Source of the DNA: Dyella sp. 2HG41-7
GTDB taxonomy: Bacteria; Pseudomonadota; Gammaproteobacteria; Xanthomonadales; Rhodanobacteraceae
Assembly (NCBI RefSeq): GCF_021390675.1
Contig: NZ_JAJEJV010000004.1
Span: 930,001-994,000, forward strand
Direction: 5' to 3'
DNA length: 64,000 nucleotides
Below are positions 567 through 16,800 of this stretch, one piece after another. Within the stretch, counting starts at the first letter, position 1; each line of letters begins with the position of its first letter. The notes below the pieces were generated by a model. That model was not told the origin of the DNA. It saw nothing but the letters and a program-made list of their open reading frames with translations, and did not search any database. The translations under genes were made by a program, and so were the position numbers.

Positions 567-2129
567 TCAGCGATCGAGACGCTGGATAAGCGGTTGCAGA
601 AAATCCCGATAGCGCGGGCTGCGCGCCGTGTCGCTGCGAATGGGTTGCCGTACTTGCGCAGCGCTGGCTGTGCTATGCACGTCGCGCTGTGTTTGATGTG
701 GCGAGAGGCAAGCTTCGTCGAAGGGCAGTTGGCAGAATGAGAGCAATTGCCGAATCAGTACTTCGGGTTCTTGCACTAATGCTTCGTAGGAAAGATCGAA
801 CACGTAGCCCGAGTAATGCTGCTGCCAGAAGTTGCTAAGATGCACGTAGTCGTTGCTGTAACTGGCCAGATCGTCCAGGTCGTAGCTGAAGAGAATGCCT
901 TCGCTAAACAACTGTCGATAGCAGGCAAAACAGGTTTCGACGGGATCGCGATGGCAGTTGATGATCTTGGCGCCCGGCAGCATGGCGCGAATAACGCCGA
1001 TCCATTGCCAGTTCTGCAATCCTTTGTCGGTGAAATAGGGGCGTTTTTTGCGCCAGTGCGCGGTGCGCGCAAGATAGTCCTTGCCCAGTCGCGCCCAATC
1101 TTCCGGTGTCGCATCTGCCGCCCAATGCGGAAATGCTTTGCCGCGCCGTTTCGATTCCCTTTCGATGACGTGTGACAAGTCGGAAATCTCATTCGCGCCT
1201 TCCACTTGCGGATGCGAGGCAAGGATGTGCTCGACGAGTGTCGATCCGGAACGAGGCATGCTTGCGATGAAAAGCACCTCGCGCCCGAGGGTTGGATCGA
1301 GCGGCGTTGGCATCGGATGGCGAAACGCTTCGACGATGTCGCCAACATGAGCGTGCTCAACAGCAGCGTTCCACTCAATCAATTGCCGCTTAAGTGCATT
1401 GGCTTCGCGCAACGCTTGAAAGGCGCCGGCGTAGTCGTGTTGATCTTCCAGCGCCCTGTAGAGGCTGAAACCCAGGAATACGCGGTCATCGGGCGCAAGC
1501 CGCGAGCTTTGCAGAATGTGCTGGATTTGTTGCGCATCCTGTTGAGTCAGCGATACGGTTTTCAGATTGGCCAGCCCGTGCCATGCAAGTGCGTGTTCCG
1601 GCTGCAGAGCGAGCACCTTGCGGTATTGGGCGACGGCGCCGGAAATGTCGCCGCGTATCGTGAAGATATCGGCGAGCGTAGTGCGCGCAGCGATGTGTCG
1701 TGCGTCAAGATCGAGTGCACGCCGCAAGGCGTCTGCTGCCGCATCCAGCTGCCAGTTCAATTTCAGCGCTTTGCCAAGGTTGAACCAGACCGCAGCTTGC
1801 ATAGGCGCCAGTTCGGTAGCGCGGCGCAGATGCGTGAAGGCTTCTTCCGTGGCGCCCGAATCGTAGAGCGCGCCGCCAAGGTTGGTGAGGATGCTTGGAT
1901 CATCCGGGCGTTGCAGCGCCGCCTTGCGCATAAATGCGGCGGCATTGACGCTGTCGCCGCGCATCTGGCAAGCGATGCCATACAGAAACTGCGCATTGGC
2001 GAAGTCGGGTGCTTCGGCCAGCACGCGTTTCAAGGGTTGTTCGGCCAAATCCGCGCGCCCTTCGGATAACGCCTTACCGGCTTCGCTCAACCACTGGCGT
2101 GCTGCGGGAGAGAGGGAGGGAGGCGACAT
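567..2129 (-). CDS. TPR-repeat sulfotransferase family protein (copy 1)
   Basis: A 520-residue protein. Residues about 10-210 are tetratricopeptide repeats (several A..W..LG.AL / A...YR..L.L.P units). Residues about 285-510 form a PAPS-dependent sulfotransferase domain: the 5'-phosphosulfate loop SMPRSGSTLVEHIL lies near 290-303 and the 3'-phosphate motif NCHRDPVETCFACY near 391-404. The PRSG(S/T)TL loop resembles eukaryotic tyrosylprotein sulfotransferases, and TPRs normally bind protein partners, so a protein or peptide acceptor is plausible but inferred. There is no signal peptide, so it is probably cytoplasmic. It lies between two Oar-like receptors and is divergent from the PiuC-type hydroxylase; copies 2 and 3 are at 6816 and 11940. 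Confidence 0.85.
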   Translation of the reverse strand: MSPPSLSPAARQWLSEAGKALSEGRADLAEQPLKRVLAEAPDFANAQFLYGIACQMRGDSVNAAAFMRKAALQRPDDPSILTNLGGALYDSGATEEAFTHLRRATELAPMQAAVWFNLGKALKLNWQLDAAADALRRALDLDARHIAARTTLADIFTIRGDISGAVAQYRKVLALQPEHALAWHGLANLKTVSLTQQDAQQIQHILQSSRLAPDDRVFLGFSLYRALEDQHDYAGAFQALREANALKRQLIEWNAAVEHAHVGDIVEAFRHPMPTPLDPTLGREVLFIASMPRSGSTLVEHILASHPQVEGANEISDLSHVIERESKRRGKAFPHWAADATPEDWARLGKDYLARTAHWRKKRPYFTDKGLQNWQWIGVIRAMLPGAKIINCHRDPVETCFACYRQLFSEGILFSYDLDDLASYSNDYVHLSNFWQQHYSGYVFDLSYEALVQEPEVLIRQLLSFCQLPFDEACLSPHQTQRDVHSTASAAQVRQPIRSDTARSPRYRDFLQPLIQRLDR

Positions 2130-2279
2130 GGGCTACCTGATATGGATGGTTTGAAGGCCGACGCCTAGTTTTGCATGTTCTTCGCGGCAAAAAACCGCAA
2201 TACGGCCTTGGCCGTTCCGCTTGGCACAGCGTGCGATTACCATGGACGGCGCCATGCAACCTTATGAAGGGTTACTGCC

Positions 2280-2954
2280 TTGATTTACTTTGCTCCCTCC
2301 GTTCTCAGTCCCGATGAGCTGGCGATCATCCAGTCGAAGCTGAAAAGCGTTCCGTTTGCAGATGGAGCCAGTACGGCCGGCTGGTCCGCGCGCGAAGTAA
2401 AGCGAAATCTGCAAGCGACCTTGGGTACGCCCGAATACGAGCAGATTGCGCGCACGGTAGGCGAAGCGTTTATGCGCAGCAATGAAATGCAGGCTGCGTT
2501 GTTGCCCGCGGCGACGACGTCGGTGTTGTTCAATCGTTACGGGCCGGGCATGGAATACGGCCCTCATGTGGACGCGCCCGTCATGGGCAGCTTTAACACG
2601 GCTGTACGCAGCGACATCGCCATTACCATTTTTCTTTCCGACCCCCGCAGTTACGACGGCGGCGAGTTGACCGTTTTCATGAGCGGCATCGGCAGCAAAT
2701 TCAAGCTTGAGGCAGGCGCGGCGATCGCATATCCCGCGAACACGCTGCACCACGTAACACCTGTCACGCGCGGCGTGCGCGATGCGGCGATCATCTGGGT
2801 GCAAAGCCAAGTGCGCGATCCCGCTCAGCGCGAATTGCTGTGGGATTTGGACAACGCCAAACGACAAATCTTCAATCGCGAGGGCAAGAGCCCGCTTTTC
2901 GATGCCGTCAGTAAATCGCACGCCAATTTGCTGCGCATGTGGGCGGAAATTTGA
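2280..2954 (+). CDS. piuC: PKHD-type Fe(II)/2-oxoglutarate hydroxylase (PiuC/YbiX family)
   Basis: A 224-residue protein of typical PiuC length. The Fe(II) facial triad is visible as H96-x-D98 in YGPHVDAPVMG and H157 in YPANTLHHVTPVTRG, with R164 as the probable 2-oxoglutarate ligand. The start is TTG: an in-frame stop lies five codons upstream, no ATG or GTG fits between, AAGGG lies 5' at usual spacing, and the N-terminus MIYFAPSVLSPDELA fits the family. PiuC proteins are usually found beside TBDRs in iron-regulated loci and their substrate is unknown. Here the gene is divergent from a TPR-sulfotransferase and precedes a receptor, so a receptor- or peptide-modifying role is possible but inferred. 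Confidence 0.9.
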   Translation: MIYFAPSVLSPDELAIIQSKLKSVPFADGASTAGWSAREVKRNLQATLGTPEYEQIARTVGEAFMRSNEMQAALLPAATTSVLFNRYGPGMEYGPHVDAPVMGSFNTAVRSDIAITIFLSDPRSYDGGELTVFMSGIGSKFKLEAGAAIAYPANTLHHVTPVTRGVRDAAIIWVQSQVRDPAQRELLWDLDNAKRQIFNREGKSPLFDAVSKSHANLLRMWAEI

Positions 2955-3589
2955 TTCGCCGTTTTGTGCGGTAAGTAAGGCGCATGCACGAAGCGCCGAT
3001 TTGCTTATCGACCTTCGTCCAAATAGCTGGCGCCAGTCGCGAGACACGCCATGCAGAAAATTCCACTCTTGCATGAGGCGTTCCTAGGCGATACCCGCAA
3101 TGGGTATGTCCCATCGCCAGCTTGCGTCGGTGCTCCCTCATGGGCGTTTGAAAGTGCGGACGCATCTCGTTTGAGTGCTGACCAAGCGATGTAGGCGCTC
3201 GCCCGGCGTTCGATATTTGTTGCGTCCGAATCGCGCAGATTTTGCGAAGTAAGGTTTGATCCTCGTAAAAAATCGTAGGTCATCATCTTGCCGGGGCCTC
3301 AGATTTGGCCCGAACGACGGTTTTTTACGACAAATCATTGACTTATGGCGTAAGTTATTACTTACAGATCGTAAGTTCTTGACTTACATTTGATGCCCCT
3401 ATTACGCTCGGTCCGACCGCAATTGCTAAGCACGAGTTAAAAAAGGCTTTACCAATCGTGCTTGCGGGGAGGGTGTCGTCAAAGCACTCAGGGTGGCCGT
3501 GCCGCTTTGCCTGGAGGGGAAAGCGCTACGTGACCGGTGCGATGACTACTTATTTGGGTGTCGTCCATAGCTCATTAGGGGAGCTGTCA
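2955..3589. other. 635-bp intergenic region upstream of a TonB receptor
   Basis: No convincing gene was found. Open frames on either strand lack a ribosome-binding site and domain-like composition. The right half becomes AT rich and holds the phased GTAAGT/ACTTAC array (3338-3405). The stretch 3458-3589 is open in the receptor frame but precedes the good ribosome-binding site and signal peptide, so it is treated as 5' leader. Confidence 0.6.
3338..3405 (+). promoter_or_regulatory. Phased array of GTAAGT/ACTTAC half-sites with TTGACT -35-like elements
   Basis: Hexamers alternate in orientation: ACTTAT at 3341, GTAAGT at 3350, ACTTAC at 3360, GTAAGT at 3371, ACTTAC at 3382. Start-to-start distances are 9, 10, 11 and 11 bp, so the sites face the same side of the helix. 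Two exact inverted pairs result (GTAAGT-TATT-ACTTAC and GTAAGT-TCTTG-ACTTAC). The first and last half-sites overlap TTGACT boxes (3338 and 3379), and TATTAC at 3400-3405 could be a -10 with a short 15-bp spacer. This looks like the operator/promoter of the receptor at 3590. Confidence 0.6.
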
Positions 3590-6500
3590 ATGCAAATAGA
3601 AAATTCAACTCACCGCGCGCGTCGTGCCCCGGTGCGCCATACCGCGCTTGCTGTAGCGCTCGGTTTGGCCTTCAGTGGTGGTGCGATGGCTCAGGCCGTG
3701 ACCGGCAGCATCTACGGTCAGGCTCCGGCCGCGTCCGGTGAAACCGTGCAGGTGTCGTCCAGCGCAACGGGCGTAACGCGCGAAGTTGCGGTTGGCGCCG
3801 ATGGCCGCTACCAAGTGGGTAACCTGCCGGTCGGTACGTATACCGTCACCTTGAAGCAGGACGGCAAGCCGGTCACGACGCATGAAAACGCGTCCGTTAC
3901 CTCGGGCGCCACCGGCGTGGATTTCGTTAGCGCGAACTCCGCCAACGCCAAGTCGCTGGGCACCGTCACGGTCTCGGCCAACGCGCTGCCGCCCATCGAC
4001 GTCACGAACACCAACTCGGGCACCGTCATCACCGCAGCCGAACTGCAAAAGCTGCCGATCACGCGCAATGCCGAGTCCATCGCCCTGTTGGCGCCGAACA
4101 CCGTTTCGGGCAGCAGCTTCTTCTCCGGCCCGGGCGGCAACGCGCTGGTGTCCTTCGGCGGTTCGTCTGTCAGTGAGAACGCGTACTACGTCAACGGCTT
4201 CAATACTGCCGAGCCCTACAAGAACCTGGGTGGCTTCCAGCTCCCCTACGGCGCGATCCAGCAGCAGGAAACGCTCACCGGCGGTTACGACGCACAGTAC
4301 GGCCGTTCCGATGGTGGCGTGATCAGCCAGATCGGTCAGCGCGGTACCAACGAGTGGCATTTCGGCGGTCAGGTTGTGTGGCAGCCGCGCTATCTCGAAA
4401 GCAATCCGGACAACAACGTCTACGGCAATCCGTACGTGCCGCCGTCGACCAGCCAGGTCAACTACGCGCTCGAAGAGCCGACCAAGCCCGGCACGCTGCG
4501 TCAGTACCGCAACGAAAACAAGCAGTGGGAAACGATCTATTCGGCCTACGTCGGCGGTCCGCTGATCAAGGACAAGCTGTTTATCTTCTTGGCACCTGAA
4601 GTCACCAAGACGCGTAGCACCTTGGTGGGCGTGGACACGAACGCGCCGTCGACCAACTACAGCGTGACCAACCAGCAGAGCTCCAAGTTCTACGGCAAGA
4701 TCGACTGGAACATTACCGACAGCAACATCCTCGAATTGACCACGCTGCGTAACAGCCAGCGCGGCCTGTACGCCGGCGACGGCGCGGGCAGTCTGTATGC
4801 GTTCGATTACGCCACGCGCAAGTTCGGTGCGTATTCCGGTCCGTCCGACGCGCACAAGGACAACGCTCAGTTCTACATCGGCCACTTCACCAGCTACATC
4901 ACCGATGCGGCCACGTTGAGCGTTCTGTTCGGCAAGGCGAACTTCCAGAACCCGATCGCCTACGGCAACACCAGCCCGCTGCCTTTCATTTCGCGTCCGT
5001 ACAACGAAGTGCTGCCGAACGGCACGCAGCCCAACCTCTCCAACAACCAGACGAACACGTCGTGGATCTCGCCGGATGCGAAAAACGCAACCCGCGGTCT
5101 GCGCGTCGACTTCGACTACAAGTTGGGTAGCCACGATCTGGCCGCCGGTATCGATAACATGTTCTATCGAGCCCACGACCAAGGTATCTCGCAGACCAAC
5201 CCGTTCAATCCGTCGCTCAACTACTACTGGCGCTACCTCCCCGGCGGCGTGGTGCAGAAGCGCGAGATCGGCTGGGCCACCAGCATGACGACGGCGCAGA
5301 AGGCGTACTACCTGCAGGACACCTGGCAGGTCTCGTCCACCGTGCTGTTGAAGGTCGGCGTGCGTAACGAGCACTACACCAACTACAACGATCTGGGCGA
5401 AGCCTTCACCAACCAGATCAACCAGTGGGAACCGCGTGTCGGCGCCACCTGGGACGTCAATGGCGACTCTTCGTTCAAGGTATACGGCAACGTTGGTCGC
5501 TACTACCTCGCGCTGCCGGATGACGTGGCGGAGCGTGCGGCGAACCGTTCGTACTACCTGACCACCAACTACAGCTACACCGGCATCGACGGCAACGGCG
5601 TTCCGACTGGCTTGACGCAGCTGCATGCGACCACCTCGCCGGACGGCGAAACCGGTTCGGCGAAAGATCCGCAGCAGGTTACCGCGCGCAATTTGAAGCC
5701 GGAGTACGTGGACGAATACATCGTCGGCTTCGACAAGCAGCTCAACGCCAAGTGGAACTACGGCGCGAAGGCGATGTGGCGCAACTTGAAGGTGGCCATC
5801 GACGACGAGTGCCAGCCCGGCTTGATCGCGGCCAAGATGGCCACGATGGGTCTGAATCCGGCCAACTACTCCAACTCGCTGTACGGTGCGAATTACTGCC
5901 GCCTGATCAACCCGGGCAAGACGAACGACATGTTGCTGGTGTCGGACGACGGCAGCGCCCGCACGATCGTGCCGATGACGCAGCACGACTGGGGCTACAT
6001 CAATGGCGCCCGCCGCAAGATCGCGTCGCTGGATCTCTACTTGGAGCATCCGTTCGACGGCAAGTGGATGGCTCGCATGGATTACACCTACACCCACGGT
6101 TGGGGTAACACCGAAGGTCAGGTGCGCTCCGACTTCGGTCAGCAGGACATCTCCAAGACGGAAGACTGGGACTCCTGGCAGCTGATGAATGGTCAGGACG
6201 GCGAGCTGATCAACACACGCAAGCATCAGTTCCGTTTCCGTGGCGCGTATGAGATCACCCCGGAATGGTTGCTGTCCGCCACCATGCTGGCTCAGTCCGG
6301 CCTGCCGCAGGAATGCTTGGGCTACTACGGTCCGGGCGGTTCGGGCGCTGCATACTACGGCCCGGGTGAAGTCGGCGATCCGAGCGGTTACAACAACTTC
6401 GGCAGCGGTAACTACCATTGGTGCCACGGCATTCGCATGCCCCCAGGCTCGATCGGCCACACGCCGTGGACGTTCCCGCTCAACCTCGGCGTGCATTACC

Positions 6501-6706
6501 GTCCGGACTTCGCGCAGCAGAAGATGACGGTCAGCCTGGACGTGTTCAATCTGTTCGACCAGCAGCGTCCGGTGCAGACCGACGCCGTCGGCGAGAACGC
6601 GTACAGCGCTTCGACCAACACGATCTACATCAACAACACCTACGGTCAGGGCATCTACTTCCAGAATCCCCGCACCGTTCGCCTGACGTTGACCTACGAT
6701 TACTAA
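3590..6706 (+). CDS. TonB-dependent receptor, Oar-like with N-terminal carboxypeptidase-regulatory-like domain
   Basis: A 1038-residue protein. The chosen ATG follows AGGGGAG and begins a clear signal peptide ending AMA|QA. Residues about 38-115 form a CarboxypepD_reg-like beta domain (GSIYGQ…GADGRYQVGNLPVGTYTVTL), followed by a plug domain (ITAAELQKLPI…, YVNGFNTAEPYKNLGGFQLPYGAIQQQETLTGGYDAQYGRSDGGVI) and a barrel ending in …LTLTYDY. It imports an unknown ligand across the outer membrane using TonB energy. It is preceded by the half-site array and followed by a strong terminator, so it is probably monocistronic. The barrel end is paralogous to the receptor cut by the left edge. Confidence 0.93.
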   Translation: MQIENSTHRARRAPVRHTALAVALGLAFSGGAMAQAVTGSIYGQAPAASGETVQVSSSATGVTREVAVGADGRYQVGNLPVGTYTVTLKQDGKPVTTHENASVTSGATGVDFVSANSANAKSLGTVTVSANALPPIDVTNTNSGTVITAAELQKLPITRNAESIALLAPNTVSGSSFFSGPGGNALVSFGGSSVSENAYYVNGFNTAEPYKNLGGFQLPYGAIQQQETLTGGYDAQYGRSDGGVISQIGQRGTNEWHFGGQVVWQPRYLESNPDNNVYGNPYVPPSTSQVNYALEEPTKPGTLRQYRNENKQWETIYSAYVGGPLIKDKLFIFLAPEVTKTRSTLVGVDTNAPSTNYSVTNQQSSKFYGKIDWNITDSNILELTTLRNSQRGLYAGDGAGSLYAFDYATRKFGAYSGPSDAHKDNAQFYIGHFTSYITDAATLSVLFGKANFQNPIAYGNTSPLPFISRPYNEVLPNGTQPNLSNNQTNTSWISPDAKNATRGLRVDFDYKLGSHDLAAGIDNMFYRAHDQGISQTNPFNPSLNYYWRYLPGGVVQKREIGWATSMTTAQKAYYLQDTWQVSSTVLLKVGVRNEHYTNYNDLGEAFTNQINQWEPRVGATWDVNGDSSFKVYGNVGRYYLALPDDVAERAANRSYYLTTNYSYTGIDGNGVPTGLTQLHATTSPDGETGSAKDPQQVTARNLKPEYVDEYIVGFDKQLNAKWNYGAKAMWRNLKVAIDDECQPGLIAAKMATMGLNPANYSNSLYGANYCRLINPGKTNDMLLVSDDGSARTIVPMTQHDWGYINGARRKIASLDLYLEHPFDGKWMARMDYTYTHGWGNTEGQVRSDFGQQDISKTEDWDSWQLMNGQDGELINTRKHQFRFRGAYEITPEWLLSATMLAQSGLPQECLGYYGPGGSGAAYYGPGEVGDPSGYNNFGSGNYHWCHGIRMPPGSIGHTPWTFPLNLGVHYRPDFAQQKMTVSLDVFNLFDQQRPVQTDAVGENAYSASTNTIYINNTYGQGIYFQNPRTVRLTLTYDY

Positions 6707-6731
6707 TCGACACGTCGACTGATCGCACTAC

Positions 6732-6765
6732 AAAGCCACCGATCGCAAGATCGGTGGCTTTTTTT
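6732..6765 (+). terminator. Rho-independent terminator of the TonB receptor
   Basis: A 13-bp perfect stem (AAAGCCACCGATC and its complement, loop GCAA) is followed directly by a run of seven T, 25 bases after the receptor stop codon. Confidence 0.93.
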
Positions 6766-6815
6766 AGGGCGATGTCGAAGCGCTGCGTCGCCGATGGCGC
6801 GCGAACGGAAAGAAT

Positions 6816-8411
6816 TTAGAGCTTCAGCGCTACGCGCAGCGGATCGAGTTGTGTGGCGTAGCTGCGCCATTGCTCGATGCCGCGCGTATGGATCGACTCG
6901 CGCACTTGCGCGCTGCTCGGCGTCGCGATGGGAGCCTCGTTCGCTTCGGGGCGCAGGCACGCTTCTTCCATCTCCAATCCGCAATGCGCGAGCACCTTGG
7001 GTAGCATCGCAGCCGGATCCTGCACCAGCGCCGCATAAGGTACGTCGAACATCGCGCCAGGAAGCGCCGTATGCCAGTGGCGTACTTGCTGCGCGTATTG
7101 GCCATAGTAGTGAGCCAGCGCGTCGAGGTCGTAGCTATAAGGCGAGATGTTGCCGAACATCGCCTTGAAATTGGAGAAGCATGTATCCATCGGCGAACGC
7201 GTCATGTGCAAGATCGGCGCATGCGGCAGCGCGCGCCGGATGAACGCGATCATCTGGATATTTCCTGGCAACTTGTCGACATAAAACGCGCGCCCACGCG
7301 CGCGCCATTGCGTTTGCTTCAGATAACGTTCGCCGAGTTCGCGATAGTCGATGTCTTCGCTGCGCGCAATCACCTTGAGCAGCCCCTGCGACAAAGCCGG
7401 CGGCACATCGGCGACCCAATGCAGCTGGCGCCAGAACTCGATCAATTCGCCGGCGGAAGCGACCTGCGAATGACTGGAAAGCATGCGGTCGAGCAATGTT
7501 GTGCCCGAGCGCGGCATGCCGACGATGAAAATCGGCGTCGGGCCGCGAAAGTCGCTCGCGCGCGGCAATTCTTTGCGCGTCACCGACGACATGCCGATCA
7601 ATGCCGACGTGACGGCTTCTTCCGAGGATGCCTCGTACGGATTGAGTTGATGCATCTGCGCATTGCAACGCGCAAGCGCATGCCAGGCTTCGTCGTGGCG
7701 TCCCAGATCGTCGAGCGTTTTGAAGCACGCATATTCGAATTCTGCGCGGATAAACGCCTGGTCCCGATCCGTTTTCGCGTCGGGCAGCTGTTGCAGTTGT
7801 TTTTCGAGCCACTGCAGACGCTGCGTTTCAGGACGTTGTTTGCGCAGATTGACCAACACCATCGCAGCGTCGCCGAACGTCGGCCAGCGCGCAATGCAGC
7901 GTTCAAGAACCGCGCATGCGTCGTCGATGCGACCGCTGAATTGCAGCAGCATGGCGTACATGTGCAATTGGGTCGGCGTATCCACGCCGCCTCGCACAGC
8001 CGCTTCCATCAGCGCCAGCGCGGTGGAGATTTCGCCCAGCGAGAAACGCAGGCTCGCTTGTGCGGCGAGCAACTCCGCCGGCGGCTCGGGCGCTTGCGCA
8101 AGCAAATCGAGACAGGCGCGCGCGACGACAATCTCGCCGCGTGCCACCAAATGCTCCGCCAACGTGAAGATCAGCGGAGCGTCATACGGCAGGTGACGGC
8201 TCGCGTGGAGCAGCGGGCGATTCGATGCGCGAAACTGCCCTTGTCGAAACAAGACGTCGGCAAGATCGATCAGGGCTTCCGTGTCGTTTGGCGACTGCGC
8301 AAGCAGCGACTGCAGCGCGGTTTCCGCATCGGCGAGACGATCGTTCTCCATGCACCGACGAATATGTTGGCGCAGCGCGCCTGGAGCTACCGGCAGAGTT
8401 TCTTGATTCAT
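6816..8411 (-). CDS. TPR-repeat sulfotransferase family protein (copy 2)
   Basis: A 531-residue protein from the ATG at 8411; the open frame runs further upstream but would overlap the Grx4-like gene, and MNQETLPVAPGALRQHI is the natural start. The first ~250 residues are degenerate TPR helices. The sulfotransferase domain has the PAPS loop IFIVGMPRSGTTLLDRML near 294-311 and the second motif HMTRSPMDTCFSNF near 402-415. It is paralogous to copies 1 and 3 but clearly diverged. It is transcribed in the same direction as the upstream Grx4-like gene, separated by a hairpin. The acceptor is unknown; a protein or peptide is inferred from TPRs and the TPST-like loop. Confidence 0.85.
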   Translation of the reverse strand: MNQETLPVAPGALRQHIRRCMENDRLADAETALQSLLAQSPNDTEALIDLADVLFRQGQFRASNRPLLHASRHLPYDAPLIFTLAEHLVARGEIVVARACLDLLAQAPEPPAELLAAQASLRFSLGEISTALALMEAAVRGGVDTPTQLHMYAMLLQFSGRIDDACAVLERCIARWPTFGDAAMVLVNLRKQRPETQRLQWLEKQLQQLPDAKTDRDQAFIRAEFEYACFKTLDDLGRHDEAWHALARCNAQMHQLNPYEASSEEAVTSALIGMSSVTRKELPRASDFRGPTPIFIVGMPRSGTTLLDRMLSSHSQVASAGELIEFWRQLHWVADVPPALSQGLLKVIARSEDIDYRELGERYLKQTQWRARGRAFYVDKLPGNIQMIAFIRRALPHAPILHMTRSPMDTCFSNFKAMFGNISPYSYDLDALAHYYGQYAQQVRHWHTALPGAMFDVPYAALVQDPAAMLPKVLAHCGLEMEEACLRPEANEAPIATPSSAQVRESIHTRGIEQWRSYATQLDPLRVALKL

Positions 8412-8456
8412 CCGCCGATGATAGCCGGGAACCGCCGAGGGCAAACCCAAACGCAA

Positions 8457-8478
8457 CGTGGGGGCCAAAGCCCCCACG
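8457..8478 (-). terminator. Hairpin after the Grx4-like gene
   Basis: A 9-bp perfect stem (CGTGGGGGC / GCCCCCACG, four-base loop) lies between the Grx4-like stop at 8509 and the sulfotransferase start at 8411. On the minus strand it is followed by a T/G-rich stretch. It is probably a terminator or attenuator. Confidence 0.55.
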
Positions 8479-8508
8479 CGCAAAACGCTTATGTCGGTGA
8501 CGTCCGGT

Positions 8509-9589: not shown

Positions 9590-10450
9590 TCACGCCGCCG
9601 ATTGCAGTTCGTCGAGATCCTGCTTTTGGCGACGGGCGAGCGGTGCGAGGGCCAGGGCGGCCATCGGCGAGGGACGTACGAGTTCGCGGCTCGCGTGGCC
9701 GAGCGCGGTGGGCTGTTCGCTCCAGTGAATCAATTCCATCGCCCCGGCTTCGTCTTCGATCAGCGCGGTGCAGTGTTCCACCCAATCGCCGTCGTTGAGA
9801 TACACCACGCCGTTGATCGTACGCACTTGGCCAAAATGGATATGGCCGCAGATATGACCGTCGACGCCGCGTTCGCGCGCATCCGCCGCGACACGCTCTT
9901 CATACGCGCGGATATACGCCAGTGCCTTGCCGATGTGCGATTTCACGATGATCGACAAGGGCAGATACGGCAGCGCCATGCGGCGGCGCCACGCATTGAC
10001 GCGCCGGTTGCCCCAGCAGACGAAGCGGTGCATGGCCTCGCCGATATGCAGCATCCAGCTACGGCCGATCTGCTCGGGATCGTATTCGTCGCCGTGGCTA
10101 ACGCGGTAACGACGGCCGTCCGCGCCTACGTGAATCGCATCCAGCTCGATGCGTACGCCGCAAATCGATTGGCCCACCAGGCCGCGCAGCGCGCAGTCGT
10201 GGTTGCCGGGGATATAGGTGACCTCGACCCCGCGGCGGGCCATATCCAGCACTTCCGCGATCACGGTGCCGTGATCGGGATGCCACCATCGGCGGCGGCT
10301 CAGCGATTCCAGATCGATGATGTCGCCGACGAGATAGAGCTTCTCGCACTGCAGGCTGCGCAGAAAATCCAGCAGATAAGCTGCTTTGCAGTCCGGTGTG
10401 CCCAGATGTACGTCGGATATGAAGGCGCTTCGGCAGCGAAGAATGGCCAT
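9590..10450 (-). CDS. UDP-2,3-diacylglucosamine diphosphatase-like metallophosphoesterase (LpxH-like)
   Basis: A 286-residue calcineurin-like phosphoesterase with the metal-binding motifs in order: D13-x-H15 (ISDVHLG), GDIID near 42-46, GNHD at 82-85, and GHIH near 199-202. The overall pattern, including HGDEYDP and SIIVKSHIGKA, matches LpxH2/YbbF-like enzymes that cleave UDP-2,3-diacylglucosamine in lipid A synthesis. The C-terminal ~40 residues form a basic, Ala/Leu-rich tail of unclear role. It is alone on the minus strand with 151 bases before the Grx4-like gene. A broader phosphodiesterase role cannot be excluded. Confidence 0.8.
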   Translation of the reverse strand: MAILRCRSAFISDVHLGTPDCKAAYLLDFLRSLQCEKLYLVGDIIDLESLSRRRWWHPDHGTVIAEVLDMARRGVEVTYIPGNHDCALRGLVGQSICGVRIELDAIHVGADGRRYRVSHGDEYDPEQIGRSWMLHIGEAMHRFVCWGNRRVNAWRRRMALPYLPLSIIVKSHIGKALAYIRAYEERVAADARERGVDGHICGHIHFGQVRTINGVVYLNDGDWVEHCTALIEDEAGAMELIHWSEQPTALGHASRELVRPSPMAALALAPLARRQKQDLDELQSAA

Positions 10451-10619
10451 AACGGCGCTCCCCGGTAGGTTCCCGGGAGCACAGTTTGATGTCGCAACGT
10501 CACCGAGCGATGGCGAAATGGTTGCAAACAGGTTGCCGTGGCGCCTTTTTTCGCTCGCAAAGGTGGAAAGCGCCTGTCGCTATGCGCTAAAACCACAGTA
10601 GTGCGGGGAGGAGGCGTTC

Positions 10620-11930
10620 ATGAACACATCGGCCGCCATGCAGGTCGCACAGTGGCGCGAGGCCGCCCACGCGTGCCTGCAGCGCGGCGATGTGCGTGAG
10701 GCGCAGGCGCTGTTTCAACAGGTTTTGGACCGGCGGCCGGACGACGTGGAGGCCCTGCAGCTGCTGGCCAGCTGCCATGTCGCCAACGGCGAGCTGAATC
10801 TGGCGTTGGCGCGCCTGCAGGCGGCGGCGCTTATCCATCCCGAAGACCCGAACGTTTTGCAGCAACTCGGTGCCGTGCATTTGGCGACGGCGGATGGCGC
10901 GTCAGCCGCCGCGACATTGCGCGAGACCCTGCGCATCGCGCCGGATATGTTCGTCGCGCGATTGCACTTGGGGCAAGCGCTGGAACAGCTCGGCGAGCCC
11001 CACGAAGCCTTGAAAACCTATTTCGGCGCGTTGCGCTCGGCGCAAAACCAAGGTCGCTGGCTCAACGATGAAACGACAGCGCCGGGACTTCGCGATACCG
11101 TAAAACACGCCATGCGCTTCGTCGACGCCGGACGGCTCGCTTTCTTTCATGGCGTGCTGGAGCCGTTGCAACAGCGTTACGGCGCTGACGAACTGGAGCG
11201 CGTGACGCATTGTTTGGACGTCTATCTCGGCGAGCGTTCCATCGAAATGCCCGATGCGCGCCAACGTCCGAAATTTCTCTATTTTCCGGGCATCCCCAGT
11301 CAACCTTATTACCCGCGCGAACGCTTTCCATGGCAGGAAACGCTGGAGGCCGCCACCGGCGACATCCGCGAAGAGTTGCAACGCGTACTGGCCCAGGAGT
11401 TTAGCCTGGAGACTTTTCTCGGCGCGCCGCAGCCCGGGCAGGCGCAGCAGGAAATGCTGCGATCGTCGGGCTCTGCGCCCGCCGCCTGGGATGCTTACTT
11501 TTTCTTCCGGCACGGAGAGCGCTATGAAGCGCACCTGCAAGCGTGCCCGCGCACCGCTGCGTTGCTGGATAGCGTGCCGTTGGCGCGCATTCGCAATCAT
11601 GCGCCGGAGTCCCTGTTTTCCGTGCTGAGCGCCGGCACCCATATTCTTCCGCATACGGGCGTGACCAACGTGCGCCTGGTGACGCATCTACCGCTGATTG
11701 TTCCGCCTCAATGCGCTTTGCGTGTTGGCGGCGCCACGCATATTTGGCGAGAAGGTCGATGCGTGACGTTCGACGACACCTTCGAGCACGAGGCTTGGAA
11801 TCGCAGCGAGCAGACGCGTGTGGTGCTGATTCTGGATTGCTGGAATCCTGATCTTACGGAGGCAGAGCGCGCGGCAGTGGCCGAGTTGATCGAAGCTATC
11901 GGTGACTTCAGCGCGAGTGGTGCTGATTAA
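10620..11930 (+). CDS. TPR protein with C-terminal aspartyl/asparaginyl beta-hydroxylase domain
   Basis: A 436-residue protein; the ATG follows GGGGAGGAGG. Residues about 10-140 are TPR repeats (ALFQQVLDRRPDDVEALQLLA…). Residues about 225-410 match the AspH fold, an Fe(II)/2-oxoglutarate oxygenase: FYPG-like start, H345 in HTGVTNVRL, a CALRVGG strand, and H390 in FDDTFEHEAWN, followed by RVVLILDCWNP. AspH enzymes hydroxylate Asp/Asn side chains in proteins or peptides, and the Fe is held by two histidines, as seen here. The gene is convergent with sulfotransferase copy 3 with only nine bases between stops. The target is unknown; neighbouring receptors or a peptide are candidates. Confidence 0.88.
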   Translation: MNTSAAMQVAQWREAAHACLQRGDVREAQALFQQVLDRRPDDVEALQLLASCHVANGELNLALARLQAAALIHPEDPNVLQQLGAVHLATADGASAAATLRETLRIAPDMFVARLHLGQALEQLGEPHEALKTYFGALRSAQNQGRWLNDETTAPGLRDTVKHAMRFVDAGRLAFFHGVLEPLQQRYGADELERVTHCLDVYLGERSIEMPDARQRPKFLYFPGIPSQPYYPRERFPWQETLEAATGDIREELQRVLAQEFSLETFLGAPQPGQAQQEMLRSSGSAPAAWDAYFFFRHGERYEAHLQACPRTAALLDSVPLARIRNHAPESLFSVLSAGTHILPHTGVTNVRLVTHLPLIVPPQCALRVGGATHIWREGRCVTFDDTFEHEAWNRSEQTRVVLILDCWNPDLTEAERAAVAELIEAIGDFSASGAD

Positions 11931-11939
11931 TCGACGCGT

Positions 11940-13787
11940 TCAGGTATACCCGAGACGCTCCATGACGGGACGCAGGATCGGCAAGACAGGCTCGAACATA
12001 TCGCGATAAGCAAGCCAGCGCTGCACCGCGCGAGCATGAATGCCCTGCGTGACCTGCGCATAGCTCGGCGTGCTGATGTATCCCTTATGGCGAGCATGTT
12101 CCGCAAAACGCGTCATGGGCGTCGGGTCGTCGATAGCGAGGAAGCGCCCCAATTGCTTAACGTTTTCGTCGAAATGAGCGACGACCGACTCGTAACGCCA
12201 TGTCATCACGCGCGGCGCCAACACGTCGACTTGATCGAACCAGTGTTCGAAGGCGCGTACGTAACCGCGTGCCAAGCGTTCGAGCGAGCTGCACAACACC
12301 ATAAACGCCGGTGAACGAAATGATTGCATGTAGCAACTGAGCAAGACGTCGCAAGGGTGTCGCACGCACAGAATGATCGACGCATTCGGAAACAATCGCG
12401 CGATCATCGGAAGGCACAACATGTTGAGCGGATTTTTGTCGACCAACTGTCGCGCACCCAAATCGGGCACGACCTTCCGTACCATGGCTGAATACAAGGC
12501 GCGCAACTGATCCGCGTCTGACTGCGTGAGGTCCGTCAGGGCGGAGGGGTAGGGCTGACCGATCGCCGTCATACGCTCGGTGAGCTCATAGACGAACCCG
12601 CGCTCGTCCATCGCGCGGAAGCTCGGATGTGCGTCCAGCATCTGTTCCAGCAAAGTGGTGCCGGAGCGCGGGAAGCCGACGATGAATACCGGGCTTTGTT
12701 TGGCGGATGGCGATGTCAGCGTGGCCCAGCGATGGCGTTCGGCCCGATTGGCGGTCAAATTCGCCATCGGCAACGGTTCGCTGTCTTCAGTCATCAGCTC
12801 GGGCACGATGGCGCGTGCGATCGTGAGTTGCGCCTCGTGCGCATCCTGCAGCGCCTTCCAGGCATCGCGATGATGTCCTTGCTGATGGCGTGCAGTGGCT
12901 AATCCAAACGCGGCTTGCGCAAGCACTTCGGCGTCCCTCGTCGTCACCGCGATGCGTTCGTAAAGCTCCGCGGCGTGTTGCGAATCACCGCGCCGCGCTC
13001 CGACGGCCGCATGCGCTAGCCAAGCCGCGCAGGACAGTTGCGGTTGCTGTTCATGGAGATTTTCCAATGGCAGCTGCGTCAGTTCGGCTTCGGCCTTGTC
13101 GAGCTGATTGCTGCGCTCGTACAAAGCGGCACGCAACGCCGAGATGCGCAAGCGCAGCGCATGCGAGGCACCGTTGTTCGGTAGCAAGGCCTGTTTCAGT
13201 ACGTGCATGGCGACGTCCTGATTGCCCAAGGTGGACAGCATGCTCGCCAGCGTCAGCGCCTGCTCGGCAGGCTGCGGTGGCCAATCGATGGCGTTTTCCA
13301 GCATGATTTCTTCATGCGTGTTGTCGCCGCACACATGGCAGGCATGCGCGGCTTGCAGGCGCGCTTCGATAAAGTCGGGCGCAAGCTGCACCGCTTCCAA
13401 CAGCGCATCGCGCGCTGCTAGCCAGTTTTTTTGTTGGAGATAGAGCAATCCGAGGTTGTAGTGCACGTCTGCTTGTTGTGGCGCCAGCGTCAACGCTTGC
13501 AGATAGGATTGCTCGGATATTTCCGTCTGATCTGTTTCTTGAGCGGCCAGTCCCAGATTGTTCCAGTATTCGAACGTGTGCGGTTTAAGCTGCGTCAGTC
13601 GCACAAGAAGCGGCACCGCGTCACGCACGTGGCCGGTGGCGCGCAGGGCGAGCGCGCGCAGCAGCAGGGTCGTTTCGTTGTCGCCAGACAGGCTTTCGCT
13701 TAGAGAAAGCACACGCGTCATGTCGCCTTGATGGAAGGCGGCAAGCATGGCGCTCGCGATCGTTTGTTCGTCGGGAAGGGAAGCCAT
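11940..13787 (-). CDS. TPR-repeat sulfotransferase family protein (copy 3)
   Basis: A 615-residue protein, the longest of the three. Residues about 10-330 are TPR repeats (YWNNLGLAAQETDQTEISEQSYLQALTLAP… type). The PAPS loop VFIVGFPRSGTTLLEQML lies near 367-384 and is followed by DAHPSFRAMDE; this block is strikingly similar to eukaryotic tyrosylprotein sulfotransferases, where the loop is PRSGTTLMRAMLDAHP. The 3'-phosphate motif is LCVRHPCDVLLSCY near 473-486. It lies downstream of the receptor at 13900 in the same orientation, separated by a hairpin repeat, and is convergent with the AspH-like gene. Protein tyrosine sulfation is the favoured but unproven activity. Confidence 0.86.
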   Translation of the reverse strand: MASLPDEQTIASAMLAAFHQGDMTRVLSLSESLSGDNETTLLLRALALRATGHVRDAVPLLVRLTQLKPHTFEYWNNLGLAAQETDQTEISEQSYLQALTLAPQQADVHYNLGLLYLQQKNWLAARDALLEAVQLAPDFIEARLQAAHACHVCGDNTHEEIMLENAIDWPPQPAEQALTLASMLSTLGNQDVAMHVLKQALLPNNGASHALRLRISALRAALYERSNQLDKAEAELTQLPLENLHEQQPQLSCAAWLAHAAVGARRGDSQHAAELYERIAVTTRDAEVLAQAAFGLATARHQQGHHRDAWKALQDAHEAQLTIARAIVPELMTEDSEPLPMANLTANRAERHRWATLTSPSAKQSPVFIVGFPRSGTTLLEQMLDAHPSFRAMDERGFVYELTERMTAIGQPYPSALTDLTQSDADQLRALYSAMVRKVVPDLGARQLVDKNPLNMLCLPMIARLFPNASIILCVRHPCDVLLSCYMQSFRSPAFMVLCSSLERLARGYVRAFEHWFDQVDVLAPRVMTWRYESVVAHFDENVKQLGRFLAIDDPTPMTRFAEHARHKGYISTPSYAQVTQGIHARAVQRWLAYRDMFEPVLPILRPVMERLGYT

Positions 13788-13822
13788 TAGCGCATATATT
13801 CCTCACTCATGCTCCCGAAAGA

Positions 13823-13853
13823 CACCCTCCCCTTGAGCGAAGGGGAGGGGGTG
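13823..13853. repeat. GC-rich hairpin repeat, probably also a terminator
   Basis: CACCCTCCCCTT and AAGGGGAGGGGGTG form an imperfect stem with loop GAGCG between the receptor stop (13900) and the next gene. It belongs with the other CCCTCTCC/CCCTCCCC hairpins of this window (24508, 45287, 57473). Confidence 0.6.
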
Positions 13854-13899
13854 AAACGGTTGCAAGCATGAGAGGGAATCTAACTCACTCCGGGCGACG

Positions 13900-16800
13900 T
13901 CAGAACTTCACCGTCGCTCGCGCCCAGTAATAGCGGCCCAGCACATCGTAGGTCGCCGTATCGACGTTGTAGTTCAAGCCGTTCTGATAGATCAGCGGCG
14001 GCGCCTTGTCGGTGATGTTGTCCACACCGAATTCGAAGCGCGTCTTGATCGATGGCACCGTGTAAGCGATCTGTGCCGAGTGATACAGAATCGAGGCCAT
14101 CGGTGCGCTGGCCCCGGTGATGGCGTCGGCATTGAGGTTGGTCAGATGATGGATGTAGCGCGTTTGCCATTGCGCGCTCCAGTTGCCCAGCGACCAGTTG
14201 AGTGTCAACGATCCGCGCCAGCGGGCGATATTGCCGAATTGCTGCGTATACGTGCCCGCGTAGTTGATGGTGCGTGCACCCGGCTGTCCCGGCGTGGCGT
14301 CGTTGTAGAACGAACTGGTGTAGGACGTGTTGAGGGTCAGCTTGAATTTACCGGGGTCGAAACTGCCCAGGTCGAAATGCGGAATCGCATAACTGGTGCT
14401 GAAATCCACGCCGCTGGTGCTGAGGTTGCCTAGATTCACTTCCGGCGTATTCATAAAGAAGATCGCGCCGGCCAGCGCATTGTTGCTGGGATAGCGATGG
14501 ATGAACTGGCAATACGGACTGTTGTCGTTGGCGAAGCACGCGTTGAGCACGGTTTGTGCCGCGAGCGGCGTGAGCAAGTCGCGTAGATTGATGCGCCACG
14601 CGTCGATGGTGGACGAGAAGCCGGTCAACCAACTTGGCGAGTACACCAGACCGAGGTCGTACGACATGCCGTGCTCAGGCTTCAGGTTCACGCCCGCGGG
14701 CTTGCCGCCCGAGTAAAAGCCCGTGATCTGCGGCGTCGGATTGCCCGCCCATTGCGGCGGTACGTTTTGGCAGGCCGCCGGATGCGCCGCCAACGTCGCC
14801 GAACTCAATCCCACGCACGGATCGTTGATGGTGGGGTTGGCGATGGTGATGCCGTCGTCCAATTCGTCCAGATTCGGAGCGCGGAATACTTGCGTGGCGG
14901 TGGCGCGTACCAGCAGGTCGGCAATCGGCCGCCATTCCACCGCGATTTTCTTGTTGGTAGTGGTGCCGGAGGTGTCGTAGTCGGACGCGCGTACGCCCAG
15001 ATCGAGATTCAGCGAATAAGCGCCAGGTTGTTCCGATAACAGCGGGATCAGCGTTTCGGCGTAAAGCTCTTTCACGTTGATGCTGCCGCGACCCGGCGAA
15101 CCGCACGCTTCGGCCAGCACCGCGCAGGTGGCGGTGGCGGGATCGAGAATGGCATCCGGCGTCACCGTGTAGTTCATCGAGTTCCAGCGATACAGCGCGC
15201 CGGCGGAAAGCTGCATAGCGCCGGCGGGCAGATCCCACAGTTCGCCCGAAGCATTGAATTGCAGCTGCTTCATCGTATCGGTGAGCGTATAGACCGGCGA
15301 GTCGACGCCGTTCTTCAATAGCGCCGTGACGGCCGGATCGGCCTGATCGAAAATATTGCCGCCGGAATTGATCACCGATTGCAGGTCGGCGATGTTCACT
15401 TCGTTGTAATCGACCTGCCGACGATTGGTGTAGCCGTAGTTGAGGCTCGCGTCCCACGTCCAGCTGCTTTGACCGAAGTGTCCGCGCAGACCGGTGTTTA
15501 CTTGCAGATTGTCGGTATCAAAGGTATGCAAACGCGTGCCCAGGCCCGTAAGGCGCGTATTGATCACGTAACTGGTGCCTGTGTAACCGGGCGGGGTGCC
15601 GAAGGTGACGCCAAACGGATTGATCGGATTGTTCGCTGTGACGTACCAGCCGTCGCCGGTGCCGGTCGGCGCTGGCGCATCCTGGCCGGCCGAGTTGGTG
15701 CGGTCGTAGAAGATGTTGGCGAACGCGGTGAGGTCCGGCGTGATGTTGTAATTGCCGAGCACGAAGAAGTTCGCGCGTTTCTGTTCGGTCTGGATGTAGT
15801 TGTAGGCGTTGTAGTTGAACGTGTCGTTCGGACCGCCATAACAGCGGTAGTCGCTAAGGCTACTGCCGTTGCCGTGCGCCAACGTCACGTAGGTGTTGCC
15901 TGCGCTATTCACATTACATCCGCCCGGCGAGAGTCCTGCCGGAACCAGAAAGCGTCCCGTTGGAATCGTGCCCGATCCCGCCGGTGTGATAACGCCGCTG
16001 GACAGATACAGAGCGCGTTGCGAGAAACCGCGCCGTGGGGCCAGCACCGGTGTGTACTTGTTCCAATCCAGGCCCACTACGATGTTGCCGTCGGTGCCGC
16101 TGGCGCCCGTGGTGAAGCTGAAACCGCGACGTTGCGCGTCGCCGTGGCTGGAGATGCCGTCGTTGAGGCTGAACTCCGCGCCGTTGAAATCCTTGCGCAG
16201 ATGAAAATTCACCACGCCGCCGATCGCATCCGAACCGTACGCGGTGGAGGCGCCTTCCGCGAGCACGTCCACGTTCTGGATCATGTTCTGCGGAATCATG
16301 TTGAGATCGGCGTTGGACAGCCGTTGACCGTCGACCAGCACCAACGTGCGACTTGCGCCGAGACCACGAAGCGACACGCGCGAAGCGCCGTCGCCGCCTT
16401 CCAGGGTCGGACTGGCGACGCCGCCGCCGTTGCTGTTGTTGGCCGGGTTGGTGGCGTAACCGGAAATGCTAGGCAGCTGCTGCAGCACGTTGCCGAGGGT
16501 AGGGGCGCCATTGTTGGTAATGGCGGTGCGGTCCAGCGTGATCACCGGGCTGGCCGTTTCCGTGTCGACGCGACGAATCAACGAGCCGGTCACCGTCATG
16601 CCTTCCAGTGTTTTTGCTTTGGAAGCCTGCGGTTGTTCGTTCGCGTTTTGCGCGTTGCTGCTTTGCGCGTTGTTGTTCTGGGTGGAAGTGCTTTGCTGCG
16701 GTGTCGTGTCCTGAGCGTGGACGATGAGCGCAGATGAGGCTATTCCGACTGACAAAGCCAAACGTACTGCAACGGATAAGCGATTGTAGTGTGCGTGCAT
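13900..16800 (-). CDS. TonB-dependent receptor (plug and barrel type without Oar domain)
   Basis: A 966-residue protein from the ATG at 16800, preceded by TGGGGAGT; the frame extends six codons further but that would run through the ribosome-binding site. The signal peptide ends in IVHAQD. A Gln/Asn/Ser-rich linker (about 31-62) precedes the plug, which has TLEGMTVTGSLIRR as probable TonB-box region, SLRGLGASRTLVLVDGQRL, and ASTAYGSDAIGGVVNF. The barrel ends …LGRYYWARATVKF. This plug pattern is typical of large xanthomonad/sphingomonad receptors for peptides, sugars or complex nutrients, and the ligand here is unknown. It is followed by the third sulfotransferase gene. Confidence 0.93.
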   Translation of the reverse strand: MHAHYNRLSVAVRLALSVGIASSALIVHAQDTTPQQSTSTQNNNAQSSNAQNANEQPQASKAKTLEGMTVTGSLIRRVDTETASPVITLDRTAITNNGAPTLGNVLQQLPSISGYATNPANNSNGGGVASPTLEGGDGASRVSLRGLGASRTLVLVDGQRLSNADLNMIPQNMIQNVDVLAEGASTAYGSDAIGGVVNFHLRKDFNGAEFSLNDGISSHGDAQRRGFSFTTGASGTDGNIVVGLDWNKYTPVLAPRRGFSQRALYLSSGVITPAGSGTIPTGRFLVPAGLSPGGCNVNSAGNTYVTLAHGNGSSLSDYRCYGGPNDTFNYNAYNYIQTEQKRANFFVLGNYNITPDLTAFANIFYDRTNSAGQDAPAPTGTGDGWYVTANNPINPFGVTFGTPPGYTGTSYVINTRLTGLGTRLHTFDTDNLQVNTGLRGHFGQSSWTWDASLNYGYTNRRQVDYNEVNIADLQSVINSGGNIFDQADPAVTALLKNGVDSPVYTLTDTMKQLQFNASGELWDLPAGAMQLSAGALYRWNSMNYTVTPDAILDPATATCAVLAEACGSPGRGSINVKELYAETLIPLLSEQPGAYSLNLDLGVRASDYDTSGTTTNKKIAVEWRPIADLLVRATATQVFRAPNLDELDDGITIANPTINDPCVGLSSATLAAHPAACQNVPPQWAGNPTPQITGFYSGGKPAGVNLKPEHGMSYDLGLVYSPSWLTGFSSTIDAWRINLRDLLTPLAAQTVLNACFANDNSPYCQFIHRYPSNNALAGAIFFMNTPEVNLGNLSTSGVDFSTSYAIPHFDLGSFDPGKFKLTLNTSYTSSFYNDATPGQPGARTINYAGTYTQQFGNIARWRGSLTLNWSLGNWSAQWQTRYIHHLTNLNADAITGASAPMASILYHSAQIAYTVPSIKTRFEFGVDNITDKAPPLIYQNGLNYNVDTATYDVLGRYYWARATVKF

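What the first reader, a model, noticed from the sequence alone, without database searches (positions are those of the whole stretch)
567..16800. Receptor, sulfotransferase and hydroxylase cluster: a possible sulfated/hydroxylated peptide or receptor-modification system
Seen: within 17 kb there are three TonB-dependent receptors, three diverged TPR proteins with intact PAPS motifs (copy 3 has the PRSGTTL…DAHP block of tyrosylprotein sulfotransferases), a PiuC-type Fe/2OG hydroxylase, and a TPR protein with an AspH-type hydroxylase domain. Known: bacterial RaxST sulfates a peptide tyrosine; AspH and PKHD enzymes hydroxylate proteins or small molecules. Inference: the enzymes modify a receptor loop, a secreted peptide or an imported ligand, with TPRs recognising the target. 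No PAPS-synthesis genes lie in the window.
Basis: partly seen in the sequence, partly recalled or inferred. Interest (0 to 1): 0.75.

Follow-up and report, generated by a model that had tools for sequence, protein, structure and literature searches.

The report
Outer-membrane receptors with dedicated sulfotransferases
In Dyella and related bacteria, certain outer-membrane uptake receptors sit beside their own protein-modifying sulfotransferase, and often a hydroxylase, suggesting that some bacteria chemically modify a polypeptide that works with these receptors; the target is unknown.

Summary
The genes described are present (window inferred to be Dyella). The linkage is real but narrower than proposed.

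Each of the three TPR-sulfotransferases (STs) lies beside a TonB-dependent receptor (TBDR). All 18 ST3 orthologs among 58 other family genomes have a TBDR adjacent, in several unrelated contexts, and the same genomes hold the TBDR3 ortholog. Fetched ST1 and ST2 orthologs lie within 500 bp of a TBDR in 8 of 9 and 9 of 10 cases; random loci, 1 of 40. An AspH hydroxylase gene often joins: outside the family, 7 of 9 such genes have a TBDR and an ST within about 10 kb. PiuC shows no such link. STs outside the family are mostly not TBDR-linked (8 of 40 within 6 kb).

The ST3 catalytic domain is a tyrosylprotein-sulfotransferase homolog with motifs invariant in 27 sequences. Best reading: cytosolic, receptor-dedicated sulfation and hydroxylation of a polypeptide. 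The acceptor is unknown: no convincing pairing-specific receptor tyrosine, no conserved small ORF.

The parts
2..478 (+). TBDR1, C-terminal end only (Oar-like receptor; whole gene at G000:C4:927281-930475, cut by the window start); tail-to-tail with ST1
567..2129 (-). ST1: TPR + Sulfotransfer_3 protein, 520 aa
3458..6706 (+). TBDR2: Oar-like receptor (plug, OMP_b-brl_4), tail-to-tail with ST2; the true start is probably downstream of 3458
6816..8486 (-). ST2: TPR + Sulfotransfer_3 protein (frame open to 8612; start not settled)
10620..11930 (+). TPR-AspH: TPR + aspartyl/asparaginyl beta-hydroxylase domain, tail-to-tail with ST3
11940..13787 (-). ST3: TPR + tyrosylprotein-sulfotransferase-like protein, 615 aa, 112 bp downstream of TBDR3
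13900..16818 (-). TBDR3: classical plug + barrel receptor, directly upstream of ST3
2280..2954 (+). PiuC/YbiX-type Fe/2OG hydroxylase: a neighbour of ST1 in this genus only, judged not part of the conserved module

Best explanation
These are receptor-dedicated, cytosolic protein-modification enzymes. Certain TonB-dependent receptors each have a TPR-sulfotransferase of their own. The TPR superhelix holds a polypeptide, and the TPST-like domain transfers sulfate from PAPS to it, most likely to a tyrosine. In the TBDR3/ST3 type, a TPR-AspH enzyme often adds Asp/Asn beta-hydroxylation. I think the most likely single acceptor is the receptor's own precursor while it is unfolded in the cytosol before export (about 0.35). 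A peptide or other ligand handled by that receptor follows (about 0.45, split between imported and self-made; see rivals). SHOWN: gene content, domain homology, conserved catalytic motifs, receptor-enzyme adjacency kept across changes of context, co-occurrence of AspH, no obvious signal peptide on ST1, ST3 and AspH. INFERRED: sulfation and hydroxylation activity, tyrosine as acceptor, TPR target binding, identity of the acceptor, cytosolic location, effect on uptake.
For: ST3 and TBDR3: 18 of 18 ST3 orthologs lie within 500 bp of a TBDR, in several unrelated flanking contexts. The ST3 (47% or more) and TBDR3 (57% or more) ortholog sets fall in exactly the same 19 genomes, own included, of 59 searched; both cut-offs were set afterwards, at the gaps in the two lists. 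Including more distant copies, 42 of 51 listed ST3-family places have a TBDR3-family receptor directly upstream on the same strand within 1 kb. Of the best 80 of 151 named loci, which overlap the family genomes, 73 have a TBDR ending less than 500 bp upstream on the same strand, 71 of the 74 with at least 2.9 kb held upstream. ST1 8 of 9 and ST2 9 of 10 fetched orthologs are within 500 bp of a TBDR; random 18-kb loci 1 of 40. Adjacency survives a change of orientation: tail-to-tail in most, co-directional in L039, L045, L050, L180, L181. AspH: a frame matching my ST profile lies within 5 kb in 17 of 20 fetched AspH loci and a TBDR within 6 kb in 12 of 20. Outside the family, 7 of 9 AspH genes with a frame of 420 aa or more have both a TBDR and an ST within about 10 kb. 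The ST3 catalytic domain matches TPST1/2 (E 7e-15; fold), with PRSGTT, DE394-395, K451, R476...S484 and S575 invariant in 27 sequences. AspH matches human AspH (E 3e-31). Receptors occur without the ST, but STs of these types rarely without a receptor, as expected of an accessory enzyme. APS kinases are present. A TBDT that strictly needs a cytosolic enzyme is known: CciT-CciO (PMC11870441; abstract and sections 12 and 21 read).
Against: No convincing residue separates ST-paired from ST-less receptors. TBDR2 clade, 12 against 7: five columns (R, G, S, Y, M), the one Tyr weak. TBDR3 clade, 29 against 11: three columns (G, T, F), no Tyr. TBDR2-type receptors exist without an ST, including a 69%-identical paralog in the same genome, so the ST is not essential for that receptor type. 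TPR-STs outside the family are mostly not near a TBDR: 8 of 40 within 6 kb against 4 of 40 random, Fisher p 0.35. ST1 and ST2 orthologs without a TBDR in the stretch exist (L040, L048). In G054 (L049) the tail-to-tail partners are swapped, so which ST serves which receptor is not fixed. Three of 20 AspH loci show no ST and 8 of 20 no TBDR. In CciT-CciO the receptor is targeted normally without the enzyme, which favours a ligand over the receptor as substrate. ST1 and ST2 match TPSTs only weakly. No expression or chemistry data.
Confidence: 0.55

Rival explanations
1. The enzymes act on the imported ligand or a product of it: the receptor brings in a peptide or siderophore-like compound which the cytosolic ST and hydroxylase modify for use, release or detoxification.
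For: Receptor and enzyme co-occur like CciT-CciO and PiuA-PiuC, where transformation of the transported substrate has been suggested (PMC11870441 section 21). The TBDR3 model is nearest catecholate and Cir-type receptors. A 2OG-Fe(II) oxygenase lies among the STs in L051 and L053, and an M1-type peptidase gene lies near ST3 in 8 loci.
Against: TPST-like and AspH-like domains fused to TPRs point to a polypeptide acceptor. No inner-membrane transporter was noticed among the gene clusters that recur with the pairs, but most of those clusters were not scanned against a family library.
Confidence: 0.27
2. The enzymes tailor a self-made peptide (a ribosomal peptide encoded elsewhere) that is exported and taken back by the receptor, like sulfated methanobactin, or exported for another role, like RaxX.
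For: Methanobactin operons combine a sulfotransferase with a TonB-dependent transporter (PMC3621798, passages). A table in PMC10040529 (passages) lists sulfotransferases, an aspartyl beta-hydroxylase, a lasso B2 protein and a PqqD protein under neighbouring cluster numbers. RaxST sulfates RaxX (PMC6637879, passages).
Against: No small ORF (18-140 aa) was conserved across different contexts within 1 kb of the pairs. No exporter or peptide maturase was noticed in the maps, though most recurring clusters were not scanned.
Confidence: 0.18
3. The linkage only reflects a gene-gathering hotspot, without functional connection.
For: In this window and several relatives the genes share one spot between the Grx4/metallophosphoesterase genes and other conserved flanks.
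Against: The pairs stay together in several unrelated flanking contexts, and TBDR, ST and AspH genes meet again in distant families. Identical presence pattern of ST3 and TBDR3.
Confidence: 0.05

Closest known systems
CciT-CciO (Caulobacter), PiuA-PiuC, Fiu-YbiX
   Same: a TonB-dependent receptor co-conserved with a dedicated cytosolic modifying enzyme (PMC11870441)
   Different: that enzyme is a PiuC/YbiX-type dioxygenase; here it is a TPR-sulfotransferase, often with a TPR-AspH. The window PiuC has no conserved ST link, while the genome's other PiuC lies 1.7 kb from a plug domain
Tyrosylprotein sulfotransferases TPST1/2 and bacterial RaxST
   Same: ST3 has a TPST-homologous catalytic domain with PAPS motifs and catalytic residues conserved; no direct comparison with RaxST was run
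   Different: large N-terminal TPR region; no signal peptide seen; linked to a TBDR rather than to a secreted peptide and type I exporter
Human AspH (aspartyl/asparaginyl beta-hydroxylase)
   Same: TPR plus hydroxylase domain, both metal-ligand histidines aligned (residue roles recalled)
   Different: bacterial, no membrane anchor seen, linked to TBDR and ST genes; no EGF-like domain substrate identified
Methanobactin operons with MbnS and a TonB-dependent transporter
   Same: sulfotransferase and TonB-dependent transporter together (PMC3621798, passages)
   Different: MbnS is PF00685-type in a ribosomal-peptide operon with MbnA, MbnB and MbnC; no conserved small ORF was found here

Membership tests
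Tyrosylprotein sulfotransferase (ST3) | homology over the whole TPST catalytic domain | tested here: met
   residues 15-264 of the 265-aa piece against TPST1 31-288, E 7e-15; fold match
Tyrosylprotein sulfotransferase (ST3) | PAPS-binding motifs and catalytic Glu, Lys, Ser | tested here: met
   PRSGTT 373-378, D394-E395, K451, R476...S484, S575 invariant in 27 sequences; roles of these residues in TPST2 are recalled
Tyrosylprotein sulfotransferase (ST3) | sulfates a protein tyrosine | not testable with these tools
   no chemistry available
Tyrosylprotein sulfotransferase (ST1, ST2) | homology over the whole TPST catalytic domain | tested here: inconclusive
   only weak TPST matches (E 7e-6 and 1e-4), shared with other sulfotransferases; for ST1 CurM scores best (E 9e-7)
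AspH hydroxylase | TPR plus Asp_Arg_Hydrox domain with both metal-binding His | tested here: met
   H345 in PHTG and H390 in FEHE align with human AspH
AspH hydroxylase | substrate with the EGF-like consensus Cys-x-[D/N]-x4-[F/Y]-x-Cys (recalled) | tested here: inconclusive
   TBDR3 has a conserved Cys loop (C...SPYC) of equal length but different spacing; it does not track the AspH gene
CciT-CciO type receptor-enzyme pair | receptor gene and cytosolic enzyme gene co-conserved | tested here: met
   for gene pairing; cytosolic location rests on a hydropathy scan only
CciT-CciO type receptor-enzyme pair | enzyme is a PiuC-type dioxygenase | tested here: not met
   the conserved partner is a sulfotransferase; PiuC is next to ST1 only in the genus
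Ribosomal-peptide tailoring cluster (methanobactin, RaxX) | precursor peptide gene nearby | tested here: not met
   no small ORF of 18-140 aa conserved across contexts within 1 kb of the pairs; a precursor encoded elsewhere was not searched

The most novel reading that the evidence does not exclude
A widespread gammaproteobacterial system in which dedicated cytosolic TPR enzymes sulfate tyrosines (and beta-hydroxylate Asp/Asn) of particular TonB-dependent receptors before export, making sulfated outer-membrane receptors with altered ligand, colicin or phage binding.
Probability: 0.28. Interest if true: 0.88.

Novelty: new variant of a known kind. Interest (0 to 1): 0.62.

Why it matters
Bacterial protein sulfation is known to me from very few cases (RaxX; recalled). 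The TPR-sulfotransferases have, to my knowledge, only a family name (two plasmid homologs are annotated 'tetratricopeptide repeat-containing sulfotransferase family protein'). Pairing them with defined receptors gives a place to look for the acceptor and a simple test. It would also extend the CciT-CciO idea, a receptor that needs a cytosolic enzyme, to a second enzyme class.

Tried and rejected
PiuC as part of the system: rejected; orthologs at 62% or more in 12 other genomes, beside ST1 only in G038 and G051. In six of the other ten it is on the same contig as a listed ST, 19-49 kb away.

TPR-STs in general being receptor-linked: rejected outside the family (8 of 40 within 6 kb; 3 of 40 within 500 bp; Fisher p 0.35 at 6 kb).

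Pairing-specific receptor tyrosines: none convincing. Conserved precursor peptide near the pairs: none. AspH consensus loop in TBDR3: present in similar form only, does not track AspH.

A first TBDR profile built from TBDR2 and TBDR3 missed a known receptor of this genome in the random set. It was replaced by a plug profile from 20 own-genome plugs, a barrel profile and the first profile together; adjacency counts quoted use the later set (later scripts: plug plus first profile). The ST profile was rebuilt from its own better hits, so scores of divergent members are partly by construction; rechecks the AspH loci hit by hit.

Sampling limits: ST1 counts cover 9 of 20 places at 50% identity or more (a tenth, in L059, also lies beside a TBDR). 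ST2 counts cover 10 of 13 full-length places at 50% or more. ST3 covers all 18. AspH counts cover 20 loci chosen, not the 7 in L016-L020, L022, L023, nor L011 and the window. One search used 51 ST places and 72 receptor places typed; receptor rows below about 39% identity were left out. The 80 named loci are the best of 151 and include genomes already in the family set. Outside the family 40 ST loci were fetched, one per genome, from a list cut by the tool; some lie on contigs of only 5-12 kb, so neighbours may be missed. In one search, three partial AspH matches (G272, G254, G063) and four domain-only ones were not examined. The two misses among nine (L273, L277) are both from G318, on a 10-kb stretch and a 6-kb contig.

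Literature: nine full-text searches showed me no paper on TPR-sulfotransferase/TBDR pairs. The library holds open-licence papers only, so this does not prove absence. Papers seen: PMC11870441 abstract and sections 12 and 21; PMC3621798, PMC10932419, PMC10040529, PMC6637879 passages only; all others as search listings.

Full report
OBSERVATION. The third receptor, TBDR1, is only represented by its last 158 residues at 2-478; the whole gene lies upstream. Two APS kinases lie elsewhere in the genome. The organism is a Dyella: the same-genus genome G051 has a contig of 751,286 bases, the same length as the named Dyella acidisoli contig with the same locus (inference).

OWN GENOME. Ten Sulfotransfer_3 genes exist. 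Five are TPR fusions (Pfam for four; full-length homology to ST1 for the fifth) and all five have a plug domain within 3.6 kb. The other five show no TPR and none has a plug within 5 kb; 8% of random positions on the main contig do.

FAMILY-WIDE TEST. Five proteins were searched in the same 59 genomes and two receptors likewise. ST3 orthologs (47% identity or more) occur in 18 other genomes and all 18 are within 500 bp of a TBDR. TBDR3 orthologs (57% or more) occur in exactly the same 18. Both cut-offs were read off the lists after the fact; they lie at visible gaps (next ST3 relative 44%, next TBDR3 relative 48%). The flanking genes differ between lineages (Grx/metallophosphoesterase locus in Dyella; a DinB/pyruvate-dehydrogenase-type context; a context around clusters c13-c17; another around c43-c45; gene names are my reading of the sequences), so the pair has moved as a unit or been kept through rearrangement. 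Over the 51 ST3-family places listed (35% identity or more), 42 have a TBDR3-family receptor directly upstream on the same strand within 1 kb. Of the nine others, four have one 1.9-2.4 kb away, one 7.9 kb and one 172 kb away, and three have none listed on their contig. Of 80 named loci (the best of 151) from Dyella, Rhodanobacter, Frateuria, Rudaea, Pseudoxanthomonas, Xanthomonas bonasiae and others, 73 have the receptor less than 500 bp upstream. Of the seven others, four have only 99-1,213 bp held upstream and three have a receptor 1.0-3.0 kb upstream. These loci overlap the family set, so they are not independent of it.

ST1 AND ST2. Fetched orthologs are within 500 bp of a TBDR in 8 of 9 and 9 of 10 cases; exceptions L040 and L048. 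The arrangement is mostly tail-to-tail but co-directional in L039, L045, L050, L180 and L181, so adjacency does not depend on one operon layout. In L049 the tail-to-tail partners are swapped. For the 37 ortholog loci together, 35 are within 500 bp against 1 of 40 random loci (Fisher p 2e-18, treating related genomes as independent, which overstates it).

AspH. In 20 AspH loci chosen, a frame matching my ST profile lies within 5 kb in 17 and a TBDR within 6 kb in 12. In the ten less similar loci (L061-L070) the neighbour is mostly a divergent TPR protein of about 700 aa: my rebuilt profile scores it 113-155 bits over the whole domain, while Pfam gives a match below cut-off in L063 and none in L064. 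In seven ST3 loci (L016-L020, L022, L023) AspH lies directly upstream of the receptor. In L011 and the window it lies tail-to-tail behind ST3, and in 28 of 80 named loci it is present, in several placements. Outside the family, 9 AspH genes with frames of 420 aa or more were found in 274 searched genomes of the class, own included. Seven have both a TBDR and one or more STs within about 10 kb (L074, L101, L104, L109, L274, L275, L276); in all seven the receptor is nearer to TBDR3 than to TBDR2. Of five of these AspH proteins scanned with Pfam, four showed TPR hits at E 1e-5 and one (L109) did not; L104 and L274 were not scanned. ST loci without AspH outside the family rarely have a TBDR (4 of 36; Fisher p 2e-4 against 7 of 9; four of the seven come from the same 40 fetched loci). 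Random loci: 0 of 40 with AspH.

LIMITS OF THE LINKAGE. TPR-STs outside the family are mostly not receptor-linked (8 of 40 within 6 kb, 4 of 40 for random loci). Receptors of both types exist without an ST: 19 of 19 TBDR3 orthologs have one, but only 23 of 53 more distant listed relatives have an ST3-family gene within 1 kb, and TBDR2 relatives at 61-66% identity lack any ST in L173, L174 and L175. On the TBDR2 tree these ST-less receptors fall among paired ones, so the ST has probably been lost or gained more than once. PiuC does not share the pattern: beside ST1 only in the genus, elsewhere absent, on other contigs or 19 kb and more from a listed ST.

ENZYMES. The ST3 C-terminal domain aligns end to end with human TPST1/2 and the motif residues are invariant in 27 sequences, the others 39-75% identical to ST3. 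The AlphaFold model (mean pLDDT 92) matches TPR superhelices first and, among sulfotransferases, TPSTs in complex with PAP and peptide (TM-score about 0.6-0.7 on the TPST length). ST1 and ST2 are more distant. The AspH domain aligns with human AspH with both histidines. A simple hydropathy scan shows no signal-peptide-like stretch in ST1, ST3 and AspH, in contrast to TBDR3; ST2 is less clear because its start is not settled. I place the enzymes in the cytosol, where PAPS is (inference).

MECHANISM. A cytosolic enzyme with a TPR groove and a protein-sulfotransferase domain, kept beside one receptor, suggests a polypeptide acceptor linked to that receptor. I rank the receptor precursor first (about 0.35), then an imported ligand (0.27), then a self-made peptide (0.18). 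Results against the receptor are told plainly: no convincing residue separates paired from unpaired receptors. Results against a local peptide: no conserved small ORF. The TBDR3 model (mean pLDDT 78) resembles catecholate and Cir-type receptors, which does not settle the ligand.

KNOWN RELATIVES. CciT-CciO shows that a receptor can strictly need a cytosolic partner enzyme (PMC11870441; abstract, sections 12 and 21). Methanobactin operons combine a sulfotransferase and a TonB-dependent transporter (PMC3621798, passages). A table in PMC10040529 (passages) lists sulfotransferases, an aspartyl beta-hydroxylase and lasso-peptide genes under neighbouring cluster numbers in Pontixanthobacter and Allopontixanthobacter, a hint that this enzyme combination may also tailor peptides. 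My nine literature searches found no description of TPR-sulfotransferase/TBDR pairs; the library is partial.

VERDICT. It is a new variant of the receptor-plus-cytosolic-enzyme kind, with an unknown acceptor.

Noticed in passing
L179:8040-9899: In G022 the ST2 beside the TBDR2 ortholog is matched only in two pieces, one with a stop, so it looks broken while the receptor frame is open.
   Followed up: no
L051:8480-9082 and the matching gene in L053: A further 2OG-Fe(II) oxygenase (PF13640, L051 scanned) sits between the STs of these receptor/ST/AspH clusters.
   Followed up: partly
L063:5950-8046, L064:4425-6530, also L061, L066, L067, L070: TPR proteins of about 700 aa near AspH that match my ST profile (113-155 bits) but Pfam only below cut-off (L063) or not at all (L064). 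They look like a divergent ST type.
   Followed up: partly
L016-L023 (cluster c18; L018:4851-6602): An M1-type peptidase gene lies near the TBDR3-ST3 pair in 8 loci.
   Followed up: no
G000:C4:3825854 and 3829348: An APS-kinase gene lies about 3 kb from a non-TPR sulfotransferase in the same genome.
   Followed up: no
window 62034-63287: A frame that looks like an IS1595/ISXO2-type transposase (recalled from the sequence; no family search run).
   Followed up: no
L138:8439-11643: One of 40 random loci contained two ST-like frames and no TBDR (G180, outside the family).
   Followed up: no
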